Source: Verrucomicrobiota bacterium JB023 (lineage in GTDB: Bacteria; Verrucomicrobiota; Verrucomicrobiia; Verrucomicrobiales; Akkermansiaceae). From it: 37,969 nt of DNA. Location of the stretch: positions 1 through 37,969 of the forward strand of contig JAUTCR010000038.1 of NCBI GenBank assembly GCA_030673895.1. The letters are read 5' to 3'. Positions within the stretch are counted from its first letter, which is position 1; each line of letters starts with the position of its first letter. Under the pieces are notes generated by a model. It worked only from the letters and a program-made list of their open reading frames with translations, was not told where the DNA came from and did not search any database. Shown here piece after piece: positions 23,040 to 34,175 of this stretch. The translations under genes were made by a program, and so were the position numbers.

Positions 23040-24434
23040 ATGAAACGTTCCCTCTTTTCTCTCTTCCTCGCCTTAATCGCAACGCTGGCAGCCAGCGAGC
23101 GCCCTCCCAATGTCATTCTCCTCATGAGCGACGATCAGGGCTGGGGCGATGTGGGCTTTAATGGCAACGACAGGATCCGCACGCCCCACCTCGATGCGAT
23201 GGCTGCTGGAGGGATGAAATTGGATCGCTTTTACGCCTCCGCGCCTCTCTGTTCGCCCACCCGGGGCGCCTGTCTAACGGGTCGCTACCCTTTTCGGTTC
23301 GGTATTCTGGCCGCCCACACGGGAGGGATGAGAGTGGGGGAGATCACGATTGCCGAGGTGCTCAAGGAAAAGGGCTATGCCACCGGCTTCTTCGGGAAGT
23401 GGCACCTGGGATGGGTCAAGATGGAGGATGCGGGCTCGCGCGGCTTTTTCTCTCCGCCTTCTTTGCATGGCTTTGACGAGTATTTTGCCACCACCAGCGC
23501 GGTCCCCACCTGGGACCCCGGTGTTACACCAATGGGCTGGAATCGCTGGGGCGGGAAGGAAGGGGAGCCCTGGAAGGGAGGCACGCCTTACGTTCACGAT
23601 GGTGTGGAAGTCGAGGAGAACATCAGTGGCGATGATAGTCGCGTGATCATGGATCGGGTGATCGAGTTTGTTCGCCGGGAGCAAGAGCGTCCCTTCCTGG
23701 CCACTGTCTGGTTTCATGCCCCTCACGAGCCCGTGGTCGCGGGGGAAGAGTATCAAGCCCTGTATCCTGAAGCGGGAAGTTCCCGCAAGGCCTACTACGG
23801 TTGCCTTACCGCGATGGACGAGCAGATCGGGCGCTTGCGTGAGGAGTTGCGCAAGCTCGACCTGGCGGAGGACACGGTGGTGTTCTTCTGTAGTGATAAC
23901 GGCCCCGCTGGTTCTCTCGCCAAGAAAGGGATCGCCTCGACGGGAGGCTTCCGGGGGCACAAGCACACCATGTATGAGGGGGGATTGCTCGTGCCGGCTT
24001 GTGTGGAATGGCCGGGAACCATCGAAGCCGGAAGCTCGACGCAAGTGCGGTGCTCGACAGTGGACTTCCTGCCCACTGCCGCCGCGCTGGCCGGTTATGA
24101 ATTCAGTAAAAACAAGGCCCGTCCCATCGATGGAATCGACCTGATGCCCGTGATGACGGGGGAGAAGAAGGAGAGAGGCAAGCCTCTCTTCTTTGGTTAC
24201 CGCAGGCTTGTTCGCGAGGTGGATGGTCAGGCGCTCATCGACGGGAATTGGAAGCTTTTGAAAGAAGCGGAACCTGAGGGAAGGATCCGCCTCTACAATC
24301 TCGAGACTGATCCTTACGAGAAATCGGATCTCGCCGCAGAACGTCCGGAGATTTTAGATGCGATGAAGCTGAAATTGGCTGAGCTCGATGAAAGCTGCCG
24401 CTTGAGCCGGGATGGGGCCGATTATCACTACTAG
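23040..24434 (+). CDS. Secreted type I sulfatase (arylsulfatase-like)
   Basis: A 464-residue formylglycine sulfatase. A signal peptide (KRSLFSLFLALIATLAAS) precedes the metal-binding SDDQGWGDVG (D31, D32). The active-site signature is C71-S-P-T-R75 with a following G-A-C-L-T-G-R, so C71 would be converted to formylglycine. GKWHLG and SDNGPAG are the other conserved blocks. It hydrolyses a sulfate ester outside the cytoplasm; substrate specificity cannot be told. Its stop is 27 bases from the convergent phosphatase gene. A palindrome touches the start codon. Confidence 0.93.
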   Translation: MKRSLFSLFLALIATLAASERPPNVILLMSDDQGWGDVGFNGNDRIRTPHLDAMAAGGMKLDRFYASAPLCSPTRGACLTGRYPFRFGILAAHTGGMRVGEITIAEVLKEKGYATGFFGKWHLGWVKMEDAGSRGFFSPPSLHGFDEYFATTSAVPTWDPGVTPMGWNRWGGKEGEPWKGGTPYVHDGVEVEENISGDDSRVIMDRVIEFVRREQERPFLATVWFHAPHEPVVAGEEYQALYPEAGSSRKAYYGCLTAMDEQIGRLREELRKLDLAEDTVVFFCSDNGPAGSLAKKGIASTGGFRGHKHTMYEGGLLVPACVEWPGTIEAGSSTQVRCSTVDFLPTAAALAGYEFSKNKARPIDGIDLMPVMTGEKKERGKPLFFGYRRLVREVDGQALIDGNWKLLKEAEPEGRIRLYNLETDPYEKSDLAAERPEILDAMKLKLAELDESCRLSRDGADYHY

Positions 24435-24461
24435 GTCAGCCTAAGCCGTCTCAGCGGGGCT

Positions 24462-25124
24462 TCAGCGGAGATCATTGAGGTGCAGCTCGCGGCTTTGCCC
24501 CTGCTCGTTGCTTTGCCAGATGGTTCCGCTGTCCAAATCAAGCGCGCTGAGCCAACCTCCTCCATAGGCACAGGTATCCAGACAGATGGCATAGCCACGA
24601 TGAGTGGGGAGGTCGCCCTGGATGGTGTGGCCGCAGACAACGGTCTTGCCCGAACAATGCGGCTCTTGCTCGTGGAAACGAAGGTAATAGTAGGTTTCCC
24701 GTTCTTGCTCGTCAGCCGGAATATTAGCCTCCAGTCCGGCATGGACGAGGATGTGCTCGTCAAGCTCATGATAGAGCCCGGCGCTCCGGATGAACTGCCA
24801 ATGAGCCTCGGGAATGTCCTCGAAGCGGCCACCATAGGAATCGAGAGTGTCACGCCCTCCGCAGAGGCCGCTGAGAAAGCGGTCCATGTGATGCGGTGCT
24901 TCCAAGGCACGAATCATTTGGATTTCATGATTTCCCATCAAGTGGATGAGCTGGTGGCTCTCCTTGAGCTTGAGGAGGGACTCAATCACGCCCTTGGAAT
25001 CCGGACCGCGATCAACGTAGTCACCGAGGGTGACCAGGAGATCGCTCTCTTGGGGTTGCACGGTGTTGAGGAGGGTTTGCAATGAAGTCAGGCAGCCGTG
25101 AATGTCTCCGATGGCGAGGCGCAT
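24462..25124 (-). CDS. PP1-like metallophosphatase (PPP family)
   Basis: A 220-residue calcineurin-like phosphoesterase of the bacterial PPP type. All metal and catalytic motifs are there: GDIHG (6-10), GDYVDRG (34-40), GNHE (64-67), HAG (128-130) and GHT (165-167). It starts MRLAIGDIHG, so ATG 25124 is secure. It probably dephosphorylates Ser/Thr-phosphoproteins or small phosphate esters in the cytoplasm. It stands alone on the minus strand between two plus-strand sulfatases, with no obvious link to them, and may be a later insertion into a sulfatase series. Confidence 0.92.
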   Translation of the reverse strand: MRLAIGDIHGCLTSLQTLLNTVQPQESDLLVTLGDYVDRGPDSKGVIESLLKLKESHQLIHLMGNHEIQMIRALEAPHHMDRFLSGLCGGRDTLDSYGGRFEDIPEAHWQFIRSAGLYHELDEHILVHAGLEANIPADEQERETYYYLRFHEQEPHCSGKTVVCGHTIQGDLPTHRGYAICLDTCAYGGGWLSALDLDSGTIWQSNEQGQSRELHLNDLR

Positions 25125-25247
25125 GCGCGGGTGGTGCCAGACTTGGGCGCAGATTTGAAGGAGAATACCGGAGGGGAGGTTGGGAGCGAGGGCCTATCCC
25201 GAGGTCTTGTCTTGCAATTCGCTAAAAGATGGAAAGAGTTGTCGAAA

Positions 25248-27032
25248 ATGATGAAGAGTCTGATCACGAGTTTTCCAAGCGCTCTCTTGCTGTTCCTAGG
25301 TAGTCTTCTCGTCTCTGCTGGTGAGGAGTCCTCGCATCCGAACGTCCTCTTCATCGCGGTGGATGATTTGCGGCCCGCCATCGCAAGCTATGGGGACCCG
25401 CTCGCGGTGACTCCCAACTTGGACCGTCTGGCAGCGCGCAGCGTCCAGTTCGAGCGGGCTTATTGCCAAGTCGCGGTGTGTAATCCTTCGCGTGCCACGC
25501 TCATGACCGGGCTGCGGCCCGACAAGCTGGGGGTGTGGACCCTGCCCATTCACTTCCGCGAGGCGATGCCGGATGCGGTCACGATGCCCCAGTGGTTCCG
25601 CAAGTTTGGCTACACCGCGGTGAGTCATGGAAAAATCTATCACAATCCGACGCCTGACCCGCAGTCTTGGAGCGAGCCCATTCGCCGTCTTCCCCAGCTC
25701 CCTTTCCCTTATCCCGAGGGTACGCGGGAGAAGATTCGTGCGGCAGCTGCCGAGCTGCCAATAAACGATTGGCGTAAGAAATCTCTCCGGCCTCCCGCGA
25801 CGGCGGCACCGGAACTCGCGGACGAGCTGCTCATGGATGGTGCGCGCACTTCCATGGCGATCGAGGATCTGCGGCGTCTGGGAGCGGAGGAAGAGCCCTT
25901 CTTCCTCGCGATGGGATACATCCGGCCCCACTTGGCCTGGGTGGCTCCCAAGAAGTATTGGGACCTCTACGATCCGGCGGATCTGCCTGTTCTAACTGAT
26001 GAAGTCATCACGCCGGATACCCCGGCATACGCGCTACATAATAATAGCGAGCTCTCCCACTACATGGACCTCATCGACTTCCCCAGACCATGGGAGGACC
26101 GGACCATTCCGGAAGAGAAAGCCCGGCAATTGGTGCACGGCTACTATGCCTGTGTGAGCTACATCGACGCCCAGATTGGCCGCCTGCTTGACGCTCTCGA
26201 TGAGGAAGGGCTGAGTGAGGACACCATCATCGTGCTCTGGAGTGACCATGGGTGGAAGCTTGGCGAATACCGGGGCTGGGGGAAGATGACGAACTACGAG
26301 ATCGATGCCCGGGTCCCGCTGATGATCGCCACTCCGGGGATGAAGACCACAGGAGAGAAATCCTATCAGCTCGCCGAACTACTGGATCTCTACCCGACCT
26401 TGTGTGAGCTGGCGGGCATCGAGGTGCCTGACTTTGTCGATGGCAAAAGCCTGGCTCCTATCCTGCAGGATGTGGAGGCCGAGGTCCATGATGGTGCGGT
26501 CAACCAATATTATCGACGCTGGCAGGGGGAGGAATACATGGGCTATTCCCTAAGGACCAAGGACTATCGCTTCATGGATTGGCGCGAATTCGAAACCGGA
26601 GAGGTCGTCTCCCGGGAGCTGTACGACCATCGCAGCGAGCACTCGGAGAAAGAGAACATCATCGCTGCAGCGAGTCCGGAGCTACTGGAAGAATTGACTT
26701 CGATTCTTCTGAAAACCCACCCGCGTCGTGGGCTTGAGATGATGCCCACCGTGCACTCGAATCCAACCAAGCGTCCCCATCCCATCGAGGTCTCTTTTCG
26801 CAATGAAGCTGATACCGAGCTACTCATCTACGAACTATCTAGTAAAGGGAAGCGTGGCCGAGCCAATCGTTTGGCTGCGGGCGAGAGGGTGAGCCTCTCC
26901 TCCTACTTGGGCGCCGCCCTCGTGGTGGAGAGTGTCTGCGGTCGCGTCCATGAGGTTCACTACGCCGCGCTGCCTGCGCGGGAAGTGGTCGTGGGAATCC
27001 CTCAAGAACAAGCCGTGAGTTCAGAAAGTTAG
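25248..27032 (+). CDS. Iduronate-2-sulfatase-like secreted sulfatase with VHL-like tail
   Basis: From ATG 25248 (or 25251) the protein has 594 residues; the open frame extends upstream across the phosphatase start, but only this start gives a signal peptide (FPSALLLFLGSLLVSAG). The iduronate-2-sulfatase type is shown by FIAVDDLRPAIASYGD (D39, D40) and by the variant active site C78-N-P-S-R82 in place of CSPTR. SDHGWKLGEYRGWGK and a PTLCELAGI block also match. After the catalytic fold, residues ~512-563 form an extra beta-rich domain resembling the VHL beta domain (EVSFRNEADTELLIYEL, then LAAGERVSLSSYLG). It is expected to remove 2-O-sulfate from a sulfated glycan, by family only. Confidence 0.9.
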   Translation: MMKSLITSFPSALLLFLGSLLVSAGEESSHPNVLFIAVDDLRPAIASYGDPLAVTPNLDRLAARSVQFERAYCQVAVCNPSRATLMTGLRPDKLGVWTLPIHFREAMPDAVTMPQWFRKFGYTAVSHGKIYHNPTPDPQSWSEPIRRLPQLPFPYPEGTREKIRAAAAELPINDWRKKSLRPPATAAPELADELLMDGARTSMAIEDLRRLGAEEEPFFLAMGYIRPHLAWVAPKKYWDLYDPADLPVLTDEVITPDTPAYALHNNSELSHYMDLIDFPRPWEDRTIPEEKARQLVHGYYACVSYIDAQIGRLLDALDEEGLSEDTIIVLWSDHGWKLGEYRGWGKMTNYEIDARVPLMIATPGMKTTGEKSYQLAELLDLYPTLCELAGIEVPDFVDGKSLAPILQDVEAEVHDGAVNQYYRRWQGEEYMGYSLRTKDYRFMDWREFETGEVVSRELYDHRSEHSEKENIIAAASPELLEELTSILLKTHPRRGLEMMPTVHSNPTKRPHPIEVSFRNEADTELLIYELSSKGKRGRANRLAAGERVSLSSYLGAALVVESVCGRVHEVHYAALPAREVVVGIPQEQAVSSES

Positions 27033-27150
27033 GTGAGCCAATCCCCGGAGGCTCCCCTTGAGTCGTTATTGTGGATGAGGTCTGGTTCTTCGCCAAGGTG
27101 ACGTTTTTCCTGTTCGTCTCGGGCCGGTGGCTTAGTCTGAGTTGGACTTA

Positions 27151-28563
27151 ATGATGATGAAGATGAATCAGCGAAGAATTCTCCGCGGAGCATTCGGATT
27201 AATGGCGGTGATGGCATTGGCTGCCTCGCTTCCTGCCGAGCAGACCAAGCCGAATATCGTGGTGATCATGGCGGACGATCTTGGTTGGAAGGACCTCCAC
27301 TGCTACGGCAATGAGCGGTTGGATACCCCCGCCTTGGATAAGCTGGCTGCCGAGGGGATGCGCTTCACGGATGCCTATGCCGCCGCTCCCGTCTGCTCGC
27401 CGACCCGGGCTGCGATGATGACCGGGCAATCACCTGCCAGGCTAAAGTTGACCAACCATGCCCCGGGCCATCCTGATGGCTTCACCCTCGAGGGCTCGGA
27501 CCTCCAGGAGGCGGAGTCCGTCCGTAATCTCAGCCTCTCCTACGCGACCGTGGCAGAGCAAATGGCGGAGGCCGGCTACCAGACCGCACACATCGGCAAG
27601 TGGCATCTTTCCTATGTCCCCCGCGGGCAGAAGGAGAAGCCGCAAGAGGAAGATCTCCGGCCCGAGCATCAGGGCTTCTCGCTCAATATTGGAGGCTGCT
27701 ACCAGGGAGGGCCCCCTAGCTACTTCGCGCCCTACCGCATTCCTGCAATTGAAGCGAAGGTGGAGGGTGAATACCTCCCTGAGCGCTTGGCTGATGAGGC
27801 TATCGAATTCATTCAAGAGGCAAAAAACGAGCCCTTCTACCTCAACTGGTGGCCTTACTCCGTCCACTATCCCATGCAAGCGAGAGAGGAGCTAATCGCC
27901 AAGTATGAGAAGCGCAAAGGTCCGGGCATCAAGAACCCGACTTATGCGGCCATGATTGAGGCAATGGATACGGAGATTGGCCGTTTCCTCGATGCCCTGG
28001 ATGAGGCCGGTCTCCGGGAGAATACGCTCATCATTTTCAAGTCCGATAACGGAGGTTACGATGGCGACAACCAGCCCCTGCGTGGCCTGAAGGGCATGCT
28101 CTACGAAGGAGGCGTCCGCATTCCTTGGTTTGCTCGCTGGCCCGGGGTGATTGAAGCTGGGACAACCTGCCCGACTCCGATCATTAGCATGGATTGTTAC
28201 CCGACCGTCTTGGAGGCTGCGGGAATCACTCCCAATCCGGATTCACCCATTGATGGAGAGAGCTTGCTCCCGCTTTTCAAGCAGAGTGACGGCTTGAAGC
28301 GCGATGCCATTTACTTCCACTACCCGAACTACGCCTTCCACAAGTTGAATCGCTTGGGTGGAGTGGTCCGTGAGGGGGACCATAAGCTGATCAAGCGGTA
28401 TGATGACGGGGCTCTGGAGCTCTACAACCTGGCGGACGATCTCTCCGAAACGGAGAACCTCGCGGAAAAAATGCCCGACCAAGCCGAACGGCTGGAGAAG
28501 AAGCTGGATGCGTGGCTGAAGGAAATGGGTGCCGCGATGCCGACCCGTGCCGGAAGCGAGTGA
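27151..28563 (+). CDS. Secreted type I sulfatase
   Basis: A 471-residue sulfatase from ATG 27151 (several ATGs follow within five codons, and a TTG at 27142 is possible). A signal peptide with Arg-Arg near its start (NQRRILRGAFG, then a hydrophobic stretch to LPAEQ) precedes VIMADDLGWKDL. The formylglycine motif is C82-S-P-T-R86 followed by AAMMTG. GKWHLS, KSDNGGYDG and the GGVRIPWFARWPG block are all present. It resembles the arylsulfatase A-like proteins abundant in Planctomycetota and Verrucomicrobiota. It is the last of the three plus-strand sulfatases and is followed by a hairpin terminator. Confidence 0.93.
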   Translation: MMMKMNQRRILRGAFGLMAVMALAASLPAEQTKPNIVVIMADDLGWKDLHCYGNERLDTPALDKLAAEGMRFTDAYAAAPVCSPTRAAMMTGQSPARLKLTNHAPGHPDGFTLEGSDLQEAESVRNLSLSYATVAEQMAEAGYQTAHIGKWHLSYVPRGQKEKPQEEDLRPEHQGFSLNIGGCYQGGPPSYFAPYRIPAIEAKVEGEYLPERLADEAIEFIQEAKNEPFYLNWWPYSVHYPMQAREELIAKYEKRKGPGIKNPTYAAMIEAMDTEIGRFLDALDEAGLRENTLIIFKSDNGGYDGDNQPLRGLKGMLYEGGVRIPWFARWPGVIEAGTTCPTPIISMDCYPTVLEAAGITPNPDSPIDGESLLPLFKQSDGLKRDAIYFHYPNYAFHKLNRLGGVVREGDHKLIKRYDDGALELYNLADDLSETENLAEKMPDQAERLEKKLDAWLKEMGAAMPTRAGSE

Positions 28564-29279: not shown

Positions 29280-30752
29280 TCACATTTTTTCCCCATCAAC
29301 GGTTGGTCGGGTGCGGCCTGCTTCTCGAGCCTCGGCGAGCAAATTGCTGAGATGTTGCACCTTGTCAGGATGACTTTCCGCGAGGTCATTGGTTTCGCCG
29401 GGATCCGCGTGGAGATCATAGAGTTTGCGGACGTCGTCTTTCTTCCACTCGATCAACTTCCACTGTCCGCTACAGACGGCGATGGCATTGTCTTTCGTAT
29501 CACCTTGGATGAAGATGGCCTCACGCTCGTGAGGTGAGGGCTTCCCTAGTAGAACGGGTAGGAGGCTGAAGGAGTCTTCGGCAGCATCCTCGGGTAGCTC
29601 GGTGCCGACAAGCTCGGCAGCAGTCGCGACGAGGTCGGTGAGGGGGAAGGTGTAGTCGGATACCGAGCCCTGCTCGATGTGGCCGGGCCAACGGGCGATG
29701 AAGGGAACGCGGTGCCCTCCCTCTTGCGGATGGCCTTTCCCATCCTGGAAGGGGCCGTTGGTGATGTGTCCCATCTTCCGGGCGTCGACTTTGGCCGTCT
29801 TGTACTTATCCAGAATGCCTCCCGCCGTACTCGCCAGATTGAGCACCATCCCATGAGTGCCGCGGAAGTCCTTCGGGCTCCCGCCATTGTCACTGGTGAA
29901 GATGACCAGAGTGTTCTCTTCGAGCTCGAGCTCCTTCAATTTGGCAAGGAGGGTGCCAACATGGGAGTCGAGCTCTTGGATGTAGTCGCCGAGAAGCCCC
30001 GCTTCACTCGTTCCGCGAAATGGTTCGGCGGGGGTGATATGGGTGTGCGGGCAGCAGGGGGTGAAGTAGAGGAAGAAGGGGTGCTCGGCATTACGCTCAA
30101 TGAATTCGACGGCCTTCTTCGTCAGGGTGGTGTCGACCTGGTCTTCCACCCGGGGGTGGTCGACCCCTTTCGGCAAGGGCTCTCCCTCGACAAAGCGGTA
30201 TTCCTCACCCGGGGTGCGACGGTAGATGTCGTTGTTTTCAATGAAGACACGCGTGCTGTCATTGTGGTTGCTGGGAACTCCAAAGTGGTAGTCGAAGCCC
30301 TTTTCCAATGGACCGGTGATGGGAGGCTGGTTCCAATTCTTACTATATCCCAAGTGCCACTTACCGATGGCTGCCGAGGTGTAGCCTTCTTCGCCGAGCA
30401 TGGAGGCGAGGTTCAGTTGATCGGGAGCAAGGCGATAGCCATTCCCCGTCTTCCCCAGTCGCCAGGGAGACCGGCCGGTGAGGAGACCGTAGCGCGAGGG
30501 AGAGCAAACAGACGCTGCTGCATGAGCATCCGTGAACTTCATGCCCTCTTGCGCGAGGCGGTCAATATTGGGCGTGTCGATTTTAGTAGCTCCGTAACTA
30601 CTGAGGTCACCGTAGCCGAGGTCGTCGGCGAAGATGATGACGATGTTGGGAGGATCGGCTTTCTTATCGTCTGCCTTGGCTAGGGACCCGGATAGACCGA
30701 TGGCGACCAGAAGGAGGGCTCGCAGGGTGGCAAGAAGGGGAGATGAGGTCAT
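29280..30752 (-). CDS. Secreted type I sulfatase (arylsulfatase A-like)
   Basis: A 490-residue sulfatase with a signal peptide (LRALLLVAIGLSGSLAKA), IIFADDLGYGDLSSYG (D43, D44) and the formylglycine signature C83-S-P-S-R87, with Ser at the fourth position as in many arylsulfatase A-like enzymes. GKWHLG, TSDNGGSPKD and GGHRVPFIARWPG follow. It is 45 bases downstream of the giant SGNH/dehydrogenase-like gene on the same strand, so both probably share one transcript and one regulator. The sulfate ester it cleaves is unknown. Confidence 0.93.
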   Translation of the reverse strand: MTSSPLLATLRALLLVAIGLSGSLAKADDKKADPPNIVIIFADDLGYGDLSSYGATKIDTPNIDRLAQEGMKFTDAHAAASVCSPSRYGLLTGRSPWRLGKTGNGYRLAPDQLNLASMLGEEGYTSAAIGKWHLGYSKNWNQPPITGPLEKGFDYHFGVPSNHNDSTRVFIENNDIYRRTPGEEYRFVEGEPLPKGVDHPRVEDQVDTTLTKKAVEFIERNAEHPFFLYFTPCCPHTHITPAEPFRGTSEAGLLGDYIQELDSHVGTLLAKLKELELEENTLVIFTSDNGGSPKDFRGTHGMVLNLASTAGGILDKYKTAKVDARKMGHITNGPFQDGKGHPQEGGHRVPFIARWPGHIEQGSVSDYTFPLTDLVATAAELVGTELPEDAAEDSFSLLPVLLGKPSPHEREAIFIQGDTKDNAIAVCSGQWKLIEWKKDDVRKLYDLHADPGETNDLAESHPDKVQHLSNLLAEAREAGRTRPTVDGEKM

Positions 30753-30797: not shown

Positions 30798-33700
30798 TTA
30801 CTCGACGATCAGCTCGCCCTTCATGACCCGCCAGTGGCCGGGGAAGGTGCAGATGTAGGGGTAGATGCCCGGCTCATTGGGCGCGGTGAAGTTAATTTCT
30901 TGATCCTCTTGTGGTGCGAGCAAGCGGGATGCGACGAGGATTTTGGAGCTGTCAGGCAGGTATTCTTTCTCCAGGCCATCAGGGCGGGCGGCGAGGCCAT
31001 CCGCGAGGGCGCCGACCTCGGCAACGGAGCCGGGCGTGAGCAGAATCCAATTGTGCATCATCGTGTCGGGATTGGAAAAGACCAGGCGCACCGCTTCCCC
31101 GGCTGACACGCGGAGTTCGGTCGGCGCGAACTGAAGCTCGGGCGCAGCTTGGACGCGGAGCACCTTGCCGCGCTCGGCGAGATACTTTTCATATTGCGCC
31201 GAGGCTGACTTAAGGTCCTCTTGCTTGTTCGGGTAGGAGACTCCGGTGAGCGCCTCTCCGACAGGGTTGTGAAGGAAGACCGCGGGCAATGGAGCGGAGC
31301 GCCTCGATTTCTTAAGGTCCACCGCCAGGACATTCAGGCCCGGCTTCAGCTCGACATTGATCTGTTGGTCGCCACTCCAGAGGGAGTCCTGGCTGAAGAC
31401 GAGCGACTCATTGAGGAAGACGTCAAGAGCCTTATGATTCAGAGCAATGATAGCCGACTTCGCCGCATCGGCTTCAATGAAGGTGCGATAGTGGCCGACT
31501 GCAGGGTTTTTCTTTTGTCCGGATTGAACAAGCTTCGGCTCCTCTTCTCCTGACTTCCCGAGGAACTGCCAGTGAACAAGCCGGGAGTTCTTGGCAACCT
31601 CCAGCACTGGCACGCTCCGGCCTTTCAGCGGTTCGGTTCCCCAATCCAGCTTTGCCATGGCGATTTCGACCTCCTTGCTTTTTGGCTCCAGACCGTCGAG
31701 CAAGGTTTCGATGCCTGCATTCGTCGGACGAAGGTGAGCGACAGCGTCGATAAGCTCGATCTGCACCCGGGGATGCGAGTCATCCTTGGCCAAAGTAAGA
31801 AGCTCGGACTTGTTCTCGAGAAGATTGTCCTGCAAGCGGATGGTGCGGATTGCGGCAGAGCGATATCTCTCCGAAGGGGAATTGAGGAGGTGCTTGATCA
31901 ATTCGGGACGGGTCTGCTCAAGACCGTCCAGTACGAATAGCGCCTCGAGGGCGGCTTGATCGAAAGAAGAGTCCTCCTGATCAAGCGAAGAGAGCCAACG
32001 GTCAATTGCCTCAATGGCTGGTTGCCCCTTGCTGCGAAGCTCGATGCGGGTGTGATGGCGCACGAGGTTGAGAGGGTGAAGGAGGTTGGAGCAAAGCTGG
32101 TCAAGGGAAGCTCCCTCGATTGCAGGCCAATCCTTGTTCACTGGCTTCTTAGTGTGGACGACCCGCCAGATGCGGCCGAAGTCGTGATCCCAGTGAGGAT
32201 CCCGCATGGGATGCTGGGCGTGCCCGATGATGGGGCTACAAAAATCAGAAACATAGAGGGCTCCGTCACTGCCGAACTCAAGATCAGCCGGGCGGAAGGC
32301 CGCATTGGGCGACTGCAGAATGGTGAGGTGATTCGTCCGCTTGAGCAGCCCTGAGCTGGCCTCGAAGGCGGTGAGGGTGACCGCGTAGCGGCCGAGCAAG
32401 GAAGCGGAGGCAATGCCGCTTTGATACTCATCAGGGAAGTTGCTGCTAGAGACGGTGGTCACTCCAGAGCCCTTGCCGTAGTCGGCGATCTTCCCGAAGC
32501 GGAAGGGGTGGTAGGCACCGAGTGGTCCCCAGATTAAGTTGGTTCCATCATAGACGTGACCATCGCCATACATCTGGAGAATCTCGCCCCAGCGGGTATG
32601 GGTGATCTTCCACGGGTTGGGGGTGGTGTGCTGCCACTCGGTGAGGATGCGGCCGTTGTTCGTATCGAGGCGATAGGTCGTGGCGTCGATCCCCCGGTGG
32701 ACGCCGAAGGGCGTCTCCAGCTGGGAGCGGTGGAAGACGCCATCGCTGAAGAGGATATCCCCGTAGGGATCGGTGGCGATCATGCCCCCGTGGTGCGAGT
32801 CGGTCACGTCGATGCCCCTGAGGAGCTCCTCCTGGCTATCAGCTTGCCCGTCGCCATCCGTATCGCGGACGATCCAGAGCCGGGGCTGCTCCGACACAAT
32901 CACGCCCTCGCGATGGAAGGCAACACCATCGAGCGCATCAAGCCCTTCCATGAAGGTCGTGAGCTTATCAGCCTTACCGTCCTGATCGGTGTCCTCGAGG
33001 ATCACGATTTTATCCGGAGGGGTGAGGCCGGGAACGGTGTGGGGGAAGGAGGGCATCGTGACCACCCACAGACGACCCCGGGCGTCGAAGGCGATCTGGA
33101 CGGGATTGCGCAGCTCAGGGAATTCCTCCTCGGACGCGAAGAGATTGACCTCGAAGCCATCCGCCACCGTGAATTCGGCCATCGCCTCCGCAGGTGGCTT
33201 GATGATTCCCGTGCGGTCGCCATCGTCCCGACCACGCCCTTCCGGCATGGGGGGCAGGGAAGGCACGGGGATTTCAGAGAAGCTCAGGCTGGGATCGGCC
33301 GCCATCTCGTGGACGACCTTCTCCGTGAGCTCAATCATCCGATGATAGCGGGGCATCTCACCCTCATACTCGTAGGGACGCCCCCGGACGCCAAAGTACA
33401 CGACGCCATTCTTCGGGCGCACCACCTCGGCGACGCGCTCGTGCTTGGCTGAAGTGGCTTTGGCAACCTCTGCCAAGCGCTGCTCGTCGACAGTTGCCGT
33501 CTCCGGTCCACCCAGAATGGCGGCGATGACCTTGGCAATCAGCTCATTACCTTTCTCATTGAGATGTATTCCGTTCGCCGTATAGCGGCGTTCGCCCTCA
33601 GTATAGGCCTGTCGCGTGGGAGTGAATAGATCGATGAAGGTCGCGCCCTCGGTCTCAGCCAACTTGGCAATCGCCTTCGTATACTTGGCGACAACCTCCT

Positions 33701-34175
33701 GCCGGGAGGATGAGGCCCCCTCGATCGCGATGGGAGAAAGCAGGACGAAGTCCGCACCCGGATGAGTCTTTCTGAGTTGCTTGAGATGGCTCTCGTAGTG
33801 CCTGCGGAAGTTATCCAGCCCCTCGGAGCCGGCGAAGGATTCATTCAGGCCATAGCCAAGCACCACCTGGTCGGCAGGCCACTCTTCCAAGAGGTTTCGC
33901 ATGTGCTTGGCGTAGCCTTCAAGCCGCAAGCGGTGCCCGACTTCGTCTCCGGTCCACGCCAGGCTTCGCACGCTCAACTTGGCGTCCGGATCGGCCAATT
34001 GAAGCCGTGCTTCACATTCGCCATGCTCCAACAGTCTCTCTACCATGGAGTTTCCATAAAAGAGAATGGTGGGGCCGGGCTCGGCTCGCACTTGCGTGAC
34101 TAGGAAGAAAAGGGTGAATAGGCCGCCCAAAAGAGGTAGCTGACTGAGTCTGCGAGGAAACGAATTCGATGACAT
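30798..34175 (-). CDS. SGNH hydrolase / PVC-type dehydrogenase-like / HEAT / cupredoxin fusion
   Basis: The start is ATG 34175, giving 1125 residues with a signal peptide (LPLLGGLFTLFFLVTQVRAEP); the frame is open 44 codons upstream without export features. Domains in order: an SGNH-like esterase (~35-220; FYGNSMVE replaces GDS, GYGLNES holds the Asn, NGIHLNEKG the catalytic His); a beta-propeller of the PVC-type membrane-bound dehydrogenase kind (~310-700; FTVADGFEVNLFASEE, ARGRLWVVTMPSFP); HEAT-like repeats (~710-850); a linker; and a C-terminal plastocyanin/azurin-like domain whose type 1 copper ligands are visible: H1041, C1109, H1114 and M1118 (C-x4-H-x3-M). The CxxCH heme c domain found at the end of many relatives is absent. 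It is probably an outer-periplasmic oxidoreductase or esterase; the substrate is unknown. Confidence 0.85.
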   Translation of the reverse strand: MSSNSFPRRLSQLPLLGGLFTLFFLVTQVRAEPGPTILFYGNSMVERLLEHGECEARLQLADPDAKLSVRSLAWTGDEVGHRLRLEGYAKHMRNLLEEWPADQVVLGYGLNESFAGSEGLDNFRRHYESHLKQLRKTHPGADFVLLSPIAIEGASSSRQEVVAKYTKAIAKLAETEGATFIDLFTPTRQAYTEGERRYTANGIHLNEKGNELIAKVIAAILGGPETATVDEQRLAEVAKATSAKHERVAEVVRPKNGVVYFGVRGRPYEYEGEMPRYHRMIELTEKVVHEMAADPSLSFSEIPVPSLPPMPEGRGRDDGDRTGIIKPPAEAMAEFTVADGFEVNLFASEEEFPELRNPVQIAFDARGRLWVVTMPSFPHTVPGLTPPDKIVILEDTDQDGKADKLTTFMEGLDALDGVAFHREGVIVSEQPRLWIVRDTDGDGQADSQEELLRGIDVTDSHHGGMIATDPYGDILFSDGVFHRSQLETPFGVHRGIDATTYRLDTNNGRILTEWQHTTPNPWKITHTRWGEILQMYGDGHVYDGTNLIWGPLGAYHPFRFGKIADYGKGSGVTTVSSSNFPDEYQSGIASASLLGRYAVTLTAFEASSGLLKRTNHLTILQSPNAAFRPADLEFGSDGALYVSDFCSPIIGHAQHPMRDPHWDHDFGRIWRVVHTKKPVNKDWPAIEGASLDQLCSNLLHPLNLVRHHTRIELRSKGQPAIEAIDRWLSSLDQEDSSFDQAALEALFVLDGLEQTRPELIKHLLNSPSERYRSAAIRTIRLQDNLLENKSELLTLAKDDSHPRVQIELIDAVAHLRPTNAGIETLLDGLEPKSKEVEIAMAKLDWGTEPLKGRSVPVLEVAKNSRLVHWQFLGKSGEEEPKLVQSGQKKNPAVGHYRTFIEADAAKSAIIALNHKALDVFLNESLVFSQDSLWSGDQQINVELKPGLNVLAVDLKKSRRSAPLPAVFLHNPVGEALTGVSYPNKQEDLKSASAQYEKYLAERGKVLRVQAAPELQFAPTELRVSAGEAVRLVFSNPDTMMHNWILLTPGSVAEVGALADGLAARPDGLEKEYLPDSSKILVASRLLAPQEDQEINFTAPNEPGIYPYICTFPGHWRVMKGELIVE

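What the first reader, a model, noticed from the sequence alone, without database searches (positions are those of the whole stretch)
30798..34175. Four-module secreted giant: SGNH esterase, PVC dehydrogenase-like propeller, HEAT, type 1 copper domain
The protein ends in a cupredoxin with full ligands (H1041, C1109, H1114, M1118), where many PVC relatives end in a CxxCH heme c domain. The N-terminus adds an SGNH-hydrolase fold with GNS in place of GDS. An esterase/deacylase joined to a putative sugar-oxidising propeller and a built-in copper electron carrier would be a self-contained periplasmic machine for modified glycans. The domains are read from motifs; the catalytic role is inference.
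Basis: partly seen in the sequence, partly recalled or inferred. Interest (0 to 1): 0.6.

Follow-up and report, generated by a model that had tools for sequence, protein, structure and literature searches.

The report
Glycan oxidoreductase with built-in copper relay
A large secreted protein of a Roseibacillus-like bacterium carries a sugar-dehydrogenase-like propeller whose built-in electron carrier appears to be a blue-copper domain, while relatives carry a heme domain in the same place, and the two seem to have been exchanged several times.

Summary
Carrier survey: of 113 SGNH+propeller proteins (window's included; the better matches of 58 genomes), 54 end in cupredoxin, 57 in cytochrome c, none has both, 2 are truncated. 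On the propeller tree the carrier changes 7 times (at least 5 on supported branches; 5 and 4 after dropping long branches). In one genus, proteins 62-96% identical per block over residues 101-850 then carry copper or heme. Such exchange argues that both are electron relays of an oxidising propeller. The propeller's profile and low-confidence model are nearest to PQQ sugar dehydrogenases, but a PQQ arginine is not conserved and no PqqC was found in 58 genomes: cofactor open. The esterase claim is weak: 16 of 111 keep Ser and His, and here the triad Asp is Asn. Sulfatase adjacency and one fusion suggest sulfated glycans. New variant of a known kind.

The parts
30798..34175 (-). whole gene, 1125 aa, five modules after a probable signal peptide
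34083..34175 (-). probable Sec signal peptide, residues 1-31 (by eye, no predictor run)
   Evidence: sequence read directly
33510..34076 (-). SGNH-like domain, residues 34-222; S43, G76, N111, H204; Asp of DxxH replaced by N201
   Evidence: Pfam Lipase_GDSL_2 51.8 bits; positions; comparison over 113 proteins
32031..33203 (-). DUF7133/TIGR02604 beta-propeller, residues 325-715; H461-H462 align with the HxGG catalytic-His motif of GSDH-type quinoproteins (H462 in the computed register, uncertain by one residue; H461 is the invariant one), N520 with the PQQ-contacting Asn
31596..32030 (-). HEAT-like helical repeats, residues 716-860
   Evidence: HEAT_2 27.0 bits, just under cut-off
31176..31592 (-). 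beta-rich module, residues 862-1000, of jelly-roll/galactose-binding look (by eye only); seen in the window's clade only
   Evidence: no Pfam match; clade profile hits 12 of 113
30801..31163 (-). type-1 copper (auracyanin/azurin-like) domain, residues 1005-1125; ligands H1041, C1109, H1114, M1118
29280..30752 (-). sulfatase, next gene on the same strand, 45 bp gap; CSPSR (formylglycine-type motif, recalled)
   Evidence: Pfam Sulfatase 182 bits; 76% identical gene in the same place in G002 / R. ishigakijimensis

Best explanation
A secreted, multi-domain carbohydrate oxidoreductase. The propeller oxidises a sugar (probably on a sulfated or otherwise substituted glycan or oligosaccharide), and the electrons pass one at a time to the C-terminal blue-copper domain, which hands them to the periplasmic respiratory chain, as the C-terminal cytochrome c would in the heme-ended relatives. 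The N-terminal SGNH-like domain and the beta module bind, and in this clade possibly still deacylate, the glycan; HEAT-like repeats space the parts. Shown: domain make-up, complete copper ligands, alternation of copper and heme carriers on one propeller family, fold class of the propeller at low model confidence. Inferred: oxidation, electron path, substrate class, location. Open: the propeller's cofactor (scavenged PQQ or something else).
For: Copper ligands complete in 53 of 54 copper-ended proteins; the miss (L047) is cut by its contig end just before the Met. Carrier types mutually exclusive: 54 copper, 57 heme, 0 both, two separate profiles agree. Recurrent exchange on the propeller tree: 7 changes, at least 5 forced by starred branches; 5 and 4 after removing 8 long-branch and 2 truncated rows. 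L071 (copper) and L073/L082 (heme), one genus group: 62-96% identity per 50-residue block over residues 101-850, then different carriers; the copper domains of L071/L101 fall with those of another paralog group (open fork). Propeller model: best chains AA12 pyranose dehydrogenase 6jt5 (Z 23.5, rmsd 3.2, 284 aligned), T. reesei AA12, soluble glucose dehydrogenase (22.2), aldose dehydrogenases (19-22), against NHL, RACK1 and SMP30 at 17-18. Profile match to 30 GSDH proteins: probability 97, E 1e-10, against 31 and 5e-4 for 25 SMP30/SGL propellers as control. Sulfatase next door; sulfatase-ThuA-SGNH in one ORF in G053.
Against: The arginine beside the conserved Asn, a PQQ contact in AA12 that the paper says is conserved in sGDH and Asd (PMC6881789), is Arg in 0 of 27 diverse relatives. 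No PqqC in 58 genomes (the model scores above cut-off in 4 of 115 genomes of the phylum); PqqE above cut-off in 0 of 58, without a positive control. The propeller model has mean pLDDT 58.7 on 4 sequences; Foldseek TM-scores are only about 0.3-0.5 with rmsd of 6-12, and an NHL domain ranks among the top 15; HHIP (up to Z 20.0) and two Diels-Alderases (19.5, 19.3) score like the aldose dehydrogenases. The one family member found assayed in print, heme-ended Lac161_ORF7, was reported as a beta-galactosidase (PMC5342196). A sulfatase lies beside or is fused to the gene in only 3 of 10 fetched ortholog loci.
Confidence: 0.6

Rival explanations
1. The propeller is a glycosidase or lyase without net redox output (as reported for Lac161_ORF7), and the copper or heme domain serves another purpose, for example feeding electrons to a partner oxidase or monooxygenase, or sensing redox state.
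For: PMC5342196: purified heme-ended Lac161_ORF7 hydrolysed lactose, Km 1.8 mM. PQQ arginine not conserved, no PqqC found. ThuA domains are fused in 29 of 113 proteins; ThuA is linked, from recall, to keto-sugar routes of glycoside cleavage.
Against: Lac161_ORF7 was made in E. coli BL21(DE3)pLysS induced with IPTG, which from general knowledge carries its own LacZ, and its Km is close to that of LacZ. A hydrolase does not explain why the part that is exchanged is a one-electron carrier both times.
Confidence: 0.2
2. The protein is mainly a glycan-binding scaffold: a degenerate SGNH domain, a non-catalytic propeller (compare HHIP, a GSDH-like propeller that binds ligands) and a copper domain for binding or redox buffering.
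For: Ser and/or His of the SGNH domain is missing in 95 of 111 untruncated proteins (one of these, L023, because of a frame break); HHIP ranks just behind the dehydrogenases; discoidin-like modules in 3 of 113.
Against: The DxHH and NP motifs of the propeller and the four copper ligands are kept across widely diverged proteins; a scaffold needs no carrier that alternates with a functional equivalent.
Confidence: 0.12
3. The copper/heme pattern reflects a few ancient splits plus tree error, not recurrent exchange.
For: Trees are 'quick' searches; the program warns that long branches meet; the AU test of a single copper clade did not finish; flanks of L071 and L073 show no similarity, so the pair is not proven orthologous by position.
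Against: At least 4-5 changes lie on branches with support of 95 or more; L071 sits with L073/L082 at up to 85% propeller identity, support 98.
Confidence: 0.08

Closest known systems
PVC-type heme-binding CxxCH proteins (NCBIfam TIGR02604; Pfam DUF7133, PF23500)
   Same: Same propeller family above curated cut-offs; SGNH-propeller-carrier order shared with heme-ended relatives
   Different: No CxxCH; a cupredoxin takes its place. Extra beta module
Fungal AA12 pyranose dehydrogenase CcPDH (AA8 cytochrome b + AA12 + CBM1)
   Same: Nearest fold of the propeller model; same plan of sugar-oxidising six-blade propeller + built-in one-electron carrier + glycan-binding part (PMC6881789, passages)
   Different: No AA12 or other quinoprotein among the PDB sequences matched up to E 1; carrier is blue copper at the C-terminus, not heme b at the N-terminus; PQQ arginine not conserved
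Soluble quinoprotein glucose dehydrogenase / GSDH family (PF07995)
   Same: Profile-profile match, probability 97 against 31 for the control propellers; the His motif and pocket Asn align
   Different: PF07995 not among Pfam matches up to E 1; PQQ ligands only partly kept
Auracyanin A and azurin
   Same: Copper domain, all four ligands, E 3e-18 to auracyanin A
   Different: Fused C-terminal module rather than a carrier protein of its own
Three-domain copper nitrite reductases with a fused cupredoxin or cytochrome c (recalled, not tested)
   Same: A precedent for the same choice of carrier, copper or heme, on one catalytic core
   Different: Unrelated catalytic domain

Membership tests
TIGR02604 / DUF7133 propeller family | Profile score above curated cut-off | tested here: met
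   166.4 vs 122.2 bits; 182.3 vs 27 bits
PVC-type heme-binding CxxCH protein (as named by NCBI) | CxxCH heme motif | tested here: not met
   No CxxCH in the protein
Type-1 copper proteins (plastocyanin/azurin/auracyanin) | Profile match and His, Cys, His, Met ligands in order | tested here: met
   Copper-bind 38.9 bits, cut-off 21.2; ligands aligned with auracyanin A; 53 of 54 copper-ended proteins complete
Type-1 copper proteins (plastocyanin/azurin/auracyanin) | Bound copper with blue absorbance | not testable with these tools
   needs purified protein
SGNH hydrolases / GDSL esterases | Profile score above cut-off | tested here: met
   Lipase_GDSL_2 51.8 vs 32.9 bits
SGNH hydrolases / GDSL esterases | Ser-His-Asp triad with block II Gly and block III Asn | tested here: inconclusive
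   S43, G76, N111, H204 present, Asp replaced by Asn; some SGNH esterases work without the Asp (recalled)
AA12 / PQQ sugar dehydrogenases | Six-blade propeller of the GSDH/AA12 type | tested here: inconclusive
   Best matches of a low-confidence model (pLDDT 58.7) are AA12 and sGDH; profile-profile probability 97, control 31
AA12 / PQQ sugar dehydrogenases | Conserved catalytic His | tested here: inconclusive
   H461-H462 align with the HxGG motif of GSDH, H462 in the computed register and H461 if the gap is moved by one; His in 27 of 27 and 25 of 27 relatives. The paper equates CcPDH His363 with sGDH His144; that this is the HxGG His is recalled
AA12 / PQQ sugar dehydrogenases | Arg-Asn pair contacting PQQ | tested here: not met
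   Asn kept in 27 of 27, Arg in 0 of 27
HEAT repeat proteins | HEAT profile above cut-off | tested here: inconclusive
   27.0 vs 27.7 bits

The most novel reading that the evidence does not exclude
DUF7133 propellers are a new class of sugar oxidoreductase whose cofactor is not PQQ, served by an electron-carrier cassette that evolution swaps freely between blue copper and heme c; in the window's clade this engine is joined to desulfation and possibly deacylation for oxidative breakdown of sulfated glycans.
Probability: 0.25. Interest if true: 0.75.

Novelty: new variant of a known kind. Interest (0 to 1): 0.5.

Why it matters
Genomes of this order carry up to 13 strong matches of this kind each, and two name searches found one paper that assayed a member of the family. 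A natural set of closely related catalytic cores with either copper or heme carriers is a direct test of whether the core is an oxidase: feed sugars and watch the carrier's colour change. It also shows a case in which an enzyme's electron outlet, rather than its core, is the part that is exchanged.

Tried and rejected
Single-sequence fold of the whole protein: mean pLDDT 35, unusable. Profile of the propeller against PDB sequences: scattered teneurin and kinase-sensor (PknD-type) blade matches, no quinoprotein. Viral contigs for more relatives: 359 pattern matches, none confirmed. Idea that a live SGNH domain goes with copper: raw counts lean that way (His in 44 of 54 copper against 14 of 57 heme rows), but only 5 independent pairs exist, His does not differ in 4.8 of them on average and the test cannot reach significance; not claimed. 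AU test for one copper clade: not finished in two runs. Synteny between L071 and L073 or L082: no flank similarity. ThuA and discoidin-like modules as part of the core: only 29 of 113 and 3 of 113. PqqC in the 58 genomes alone had no positive control, so repeated in the phylum; PqqE has none.

Papers: ten searches; in the listings I saw no title or abstract start that speaks of the copper-ended form, but the library holds open-licence papers only and listings are capped.
Full report
What is there. The minus-strand ORF 30801-34175 encodes 1125 residues. Pfam and NCBIfam place, from the N-terminus, an SGNH/GDSL domain, a DUF7133/TIGR02604 domain, HEAT-like repeats (just under cut-off) and a plastocyanin/azurin-type domain. 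Between HEAT and copper domain lies a beta-rich module of about 140 residues that no Pfam model matches; a profile made from the 12 proteins of the window's clade finds it in those and in no other of the 113 surveyed. The window is one whole contig (G000:C38); the nearest named relatives found are Roseibacillus ishigakijimensis (73%) and R. persicicus (69%).

Copper versus heme. I took the better SGNH+propeller matches (loci and regions) and kept 113 proteins, the window's included. 54 end in a cupredoxin, 57 in a cytochrome c with CxxCH, 2 are cut by the end of the stretch held, none has both. Separate profiles agree: the cytochrome profile finds the 57 and no copper row, the copper profile the 54 and no heme row. 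All four copper ligands are present in 53 of 54; L047 ends with its contig at CTFPGHW, before the Met. The near-even split is a statement about this sample.

Recurrent exchange. On a tree of the propellers alone the carrier changes 7 times, at least 5 on branches of 95 or more support. Leaving out 8 long-branch rows and the 2 truncated ones gives 5, at least 4 forced. The clearest case is L071 (copper, G032) beside L073 and L082 (heme, G011 and G023), all of genus group g9: blocks of 50 residues are 62-96% identical over residues 101-850 of the frame, 52% in 851-900, after which one has a cupredoxin and the others a cytochrome. The copper domains of L071 and L101 fall with those of another paralog group, which fits a transplanted domain, though that fork is open. 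Flanking DNA of L071 and L073 shows no similarity, so position does not prove orthology. The AU test did not finish. I take the exchange as the best evidence that the propeller has a one-electron outlet, that is, that it oxidises something.

The propeller. A model from four close sequences (pLDDT 58.7, pTM 0.69) matches AA12 pyranose dehydrogenase 6jt5 (Z 23.5, rmsd 3.2, 284 aligned), T. reesei AA12 and soluble glucose dehydrogenase (about 22-23), then aldose dehydrogenases (19-22), with HHIP (18-20) and two Diels-Alderases (19.5, 19.3) in the same range as the last, and NHL, RACK1 and SMP30 propellers at 17-18. Foldseek puts 6jt5 first too, but with TM-scores of about 0.45 and an NHL domain in the top 15. 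A profile of 27 diverse relatives aligns with 30 GSDH proteins at probability 97, E 1e-10; against 25 SGL/SMP30 propellers of the same order, run as a control, it reaches 31 and 5e-4 over 127 columns. It finds no quinoprotein in PDB sequences. H461-H462 of DSHHGG align with the HxGG motif of GSDH: H462 in the computed register, H461 if the gap is moved by one; H461 is invariant in 27 of 27, H462 is His in 25 of 27. N520 of TPNPW aligns with the Asn of IRNPWG. The structure paper of CcPDH (PMC6881789; passages read) equates His363 with sGDH His144 and lists Arg430 and Asn431 as PQQ contacts; the residue before the Asn is Arg in 0 of 27. PqqC was not found in the 58 genomes, while it scores above cut-off in 4 of 115 genomes across the phylum; PqqE gave 0 of 58 above cut-off, without positive control. 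So the cofactor is scavenged PQQ or something else. CcPDH, with its own cytochrome and binding module, is the best working analogue; membership in AA12 is not claimed.

The SGNH domain. Ser is kept in 14 of 54 copper and 2 of 57 heme rows, His in 44 and 14. The window's clade is well preserved: Ser in 10 of 12 (L018 has Ala; in L023 the block lies beyond a frame break and reads GNS there), His in 12 of 12. In the 14 copper rows with Ser and His, ten of them in this clade, the Asp position is Asn (13) or Arg (L015). I read the domain as a glycan-binding descendant of an esterase, possibly still active in this clade (about 1 in 3, inference). The leaning of His towards copper cannot be separated from descent.

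Surroundings. The next gene downstream on the same strand is a sulfatase (29280-30752, 45 bp gap), with a 76% identical one in the same place in R. ishigakijimensis. Three more sulfatases lie at 23040-28560 on the other strand. In G014 two sulfatases about 28-31% identical to the window's flank the gene, and a SASA-family acetylesterase follows. In G053 one ORF reads sulfatase-ThuA-SGNH up to a frame break, after which the rest of the protein follows. In all, a sulfatase is beside or fused to the gene in 3 of 10 fetched ortholog loci, the window and L044 not counted; one of the other seven (L163) is cut by its contig end. ThuA is fused in 29 of 113. The link to sulfated glycans is suggestive, not shown.

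Literature. Searches for the family names gave one paper that assayed a member: Lac161_ORF7 (TIGR02604-HEAT-cytochrome c), purified and reported as a beta-galactosidase (PMC5342196; sections 7 and 15 and passages read). It was produced in IPTG-induced BL21(DE3)pLysS, so carry-over of LacZ should be excluded before the activity is accepted; that doubt is mine. PMC8779525 (passages) surveyed azurins of 100-200 aa and so would have passed over fused copper domains.

Verdict. Real, correctly read in anatomy, over-read as an esterase, under-read as a rarity. The new content is the recurrent copper/heme exchange on a conserved propeller and the degenerate state of the SGNH domain in most of the family sampled.

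Noticed in passing
window:30798-34175: TIGR02604 scores above its cut-off here, so automatic naming would probably call this a 'PVC-type heme-binding CxxCH protein' although it has no CxxCH and a copper domain instead.
   Followed up: yes
L044:2832-11018: A 2729-aa ortholog in a Verrucomicrobiales MAG: ThuA, SGNH, DUF7133, HEAT, beta module, cupredoxin, discoidin-like part, a stretch that looks like an alpha/beta hydrolase, a second ThuA and a C-terminal part that looks like a glycosidase propeller (hydrolase and glycosidase readings by eye; Pfam shows two ThuA stretches; discoidin-like by own profile).
   Followed up: partly
L167:7969-13754 (-): Sulfatase-ThuA-SGNH in one ORF, separated by a frame change inside the SGNH domain from the rest of the copper protein; assembly error or real break not decided.
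   Followed up: partly
L169:1724-4495 (+), G000:C15: A second protein of the same genome with a C-terminal cupredoxin and only a weak match (26.8 bits) to the propeller profile.
   Followed up: no
window:23040-28560 (+): Three sulfatase genes in a row on the opposite strand, converging on the sulfatase at 29280-30752.
   Followed up: no
window:12003-15871 (+): Aquaporin-type channel (MIP), FGGY carbohydrate kinase and DAO/glycerophosphate-oxidase-type gene in a row, as in a glycerol-use cluster.
   Followed up: no
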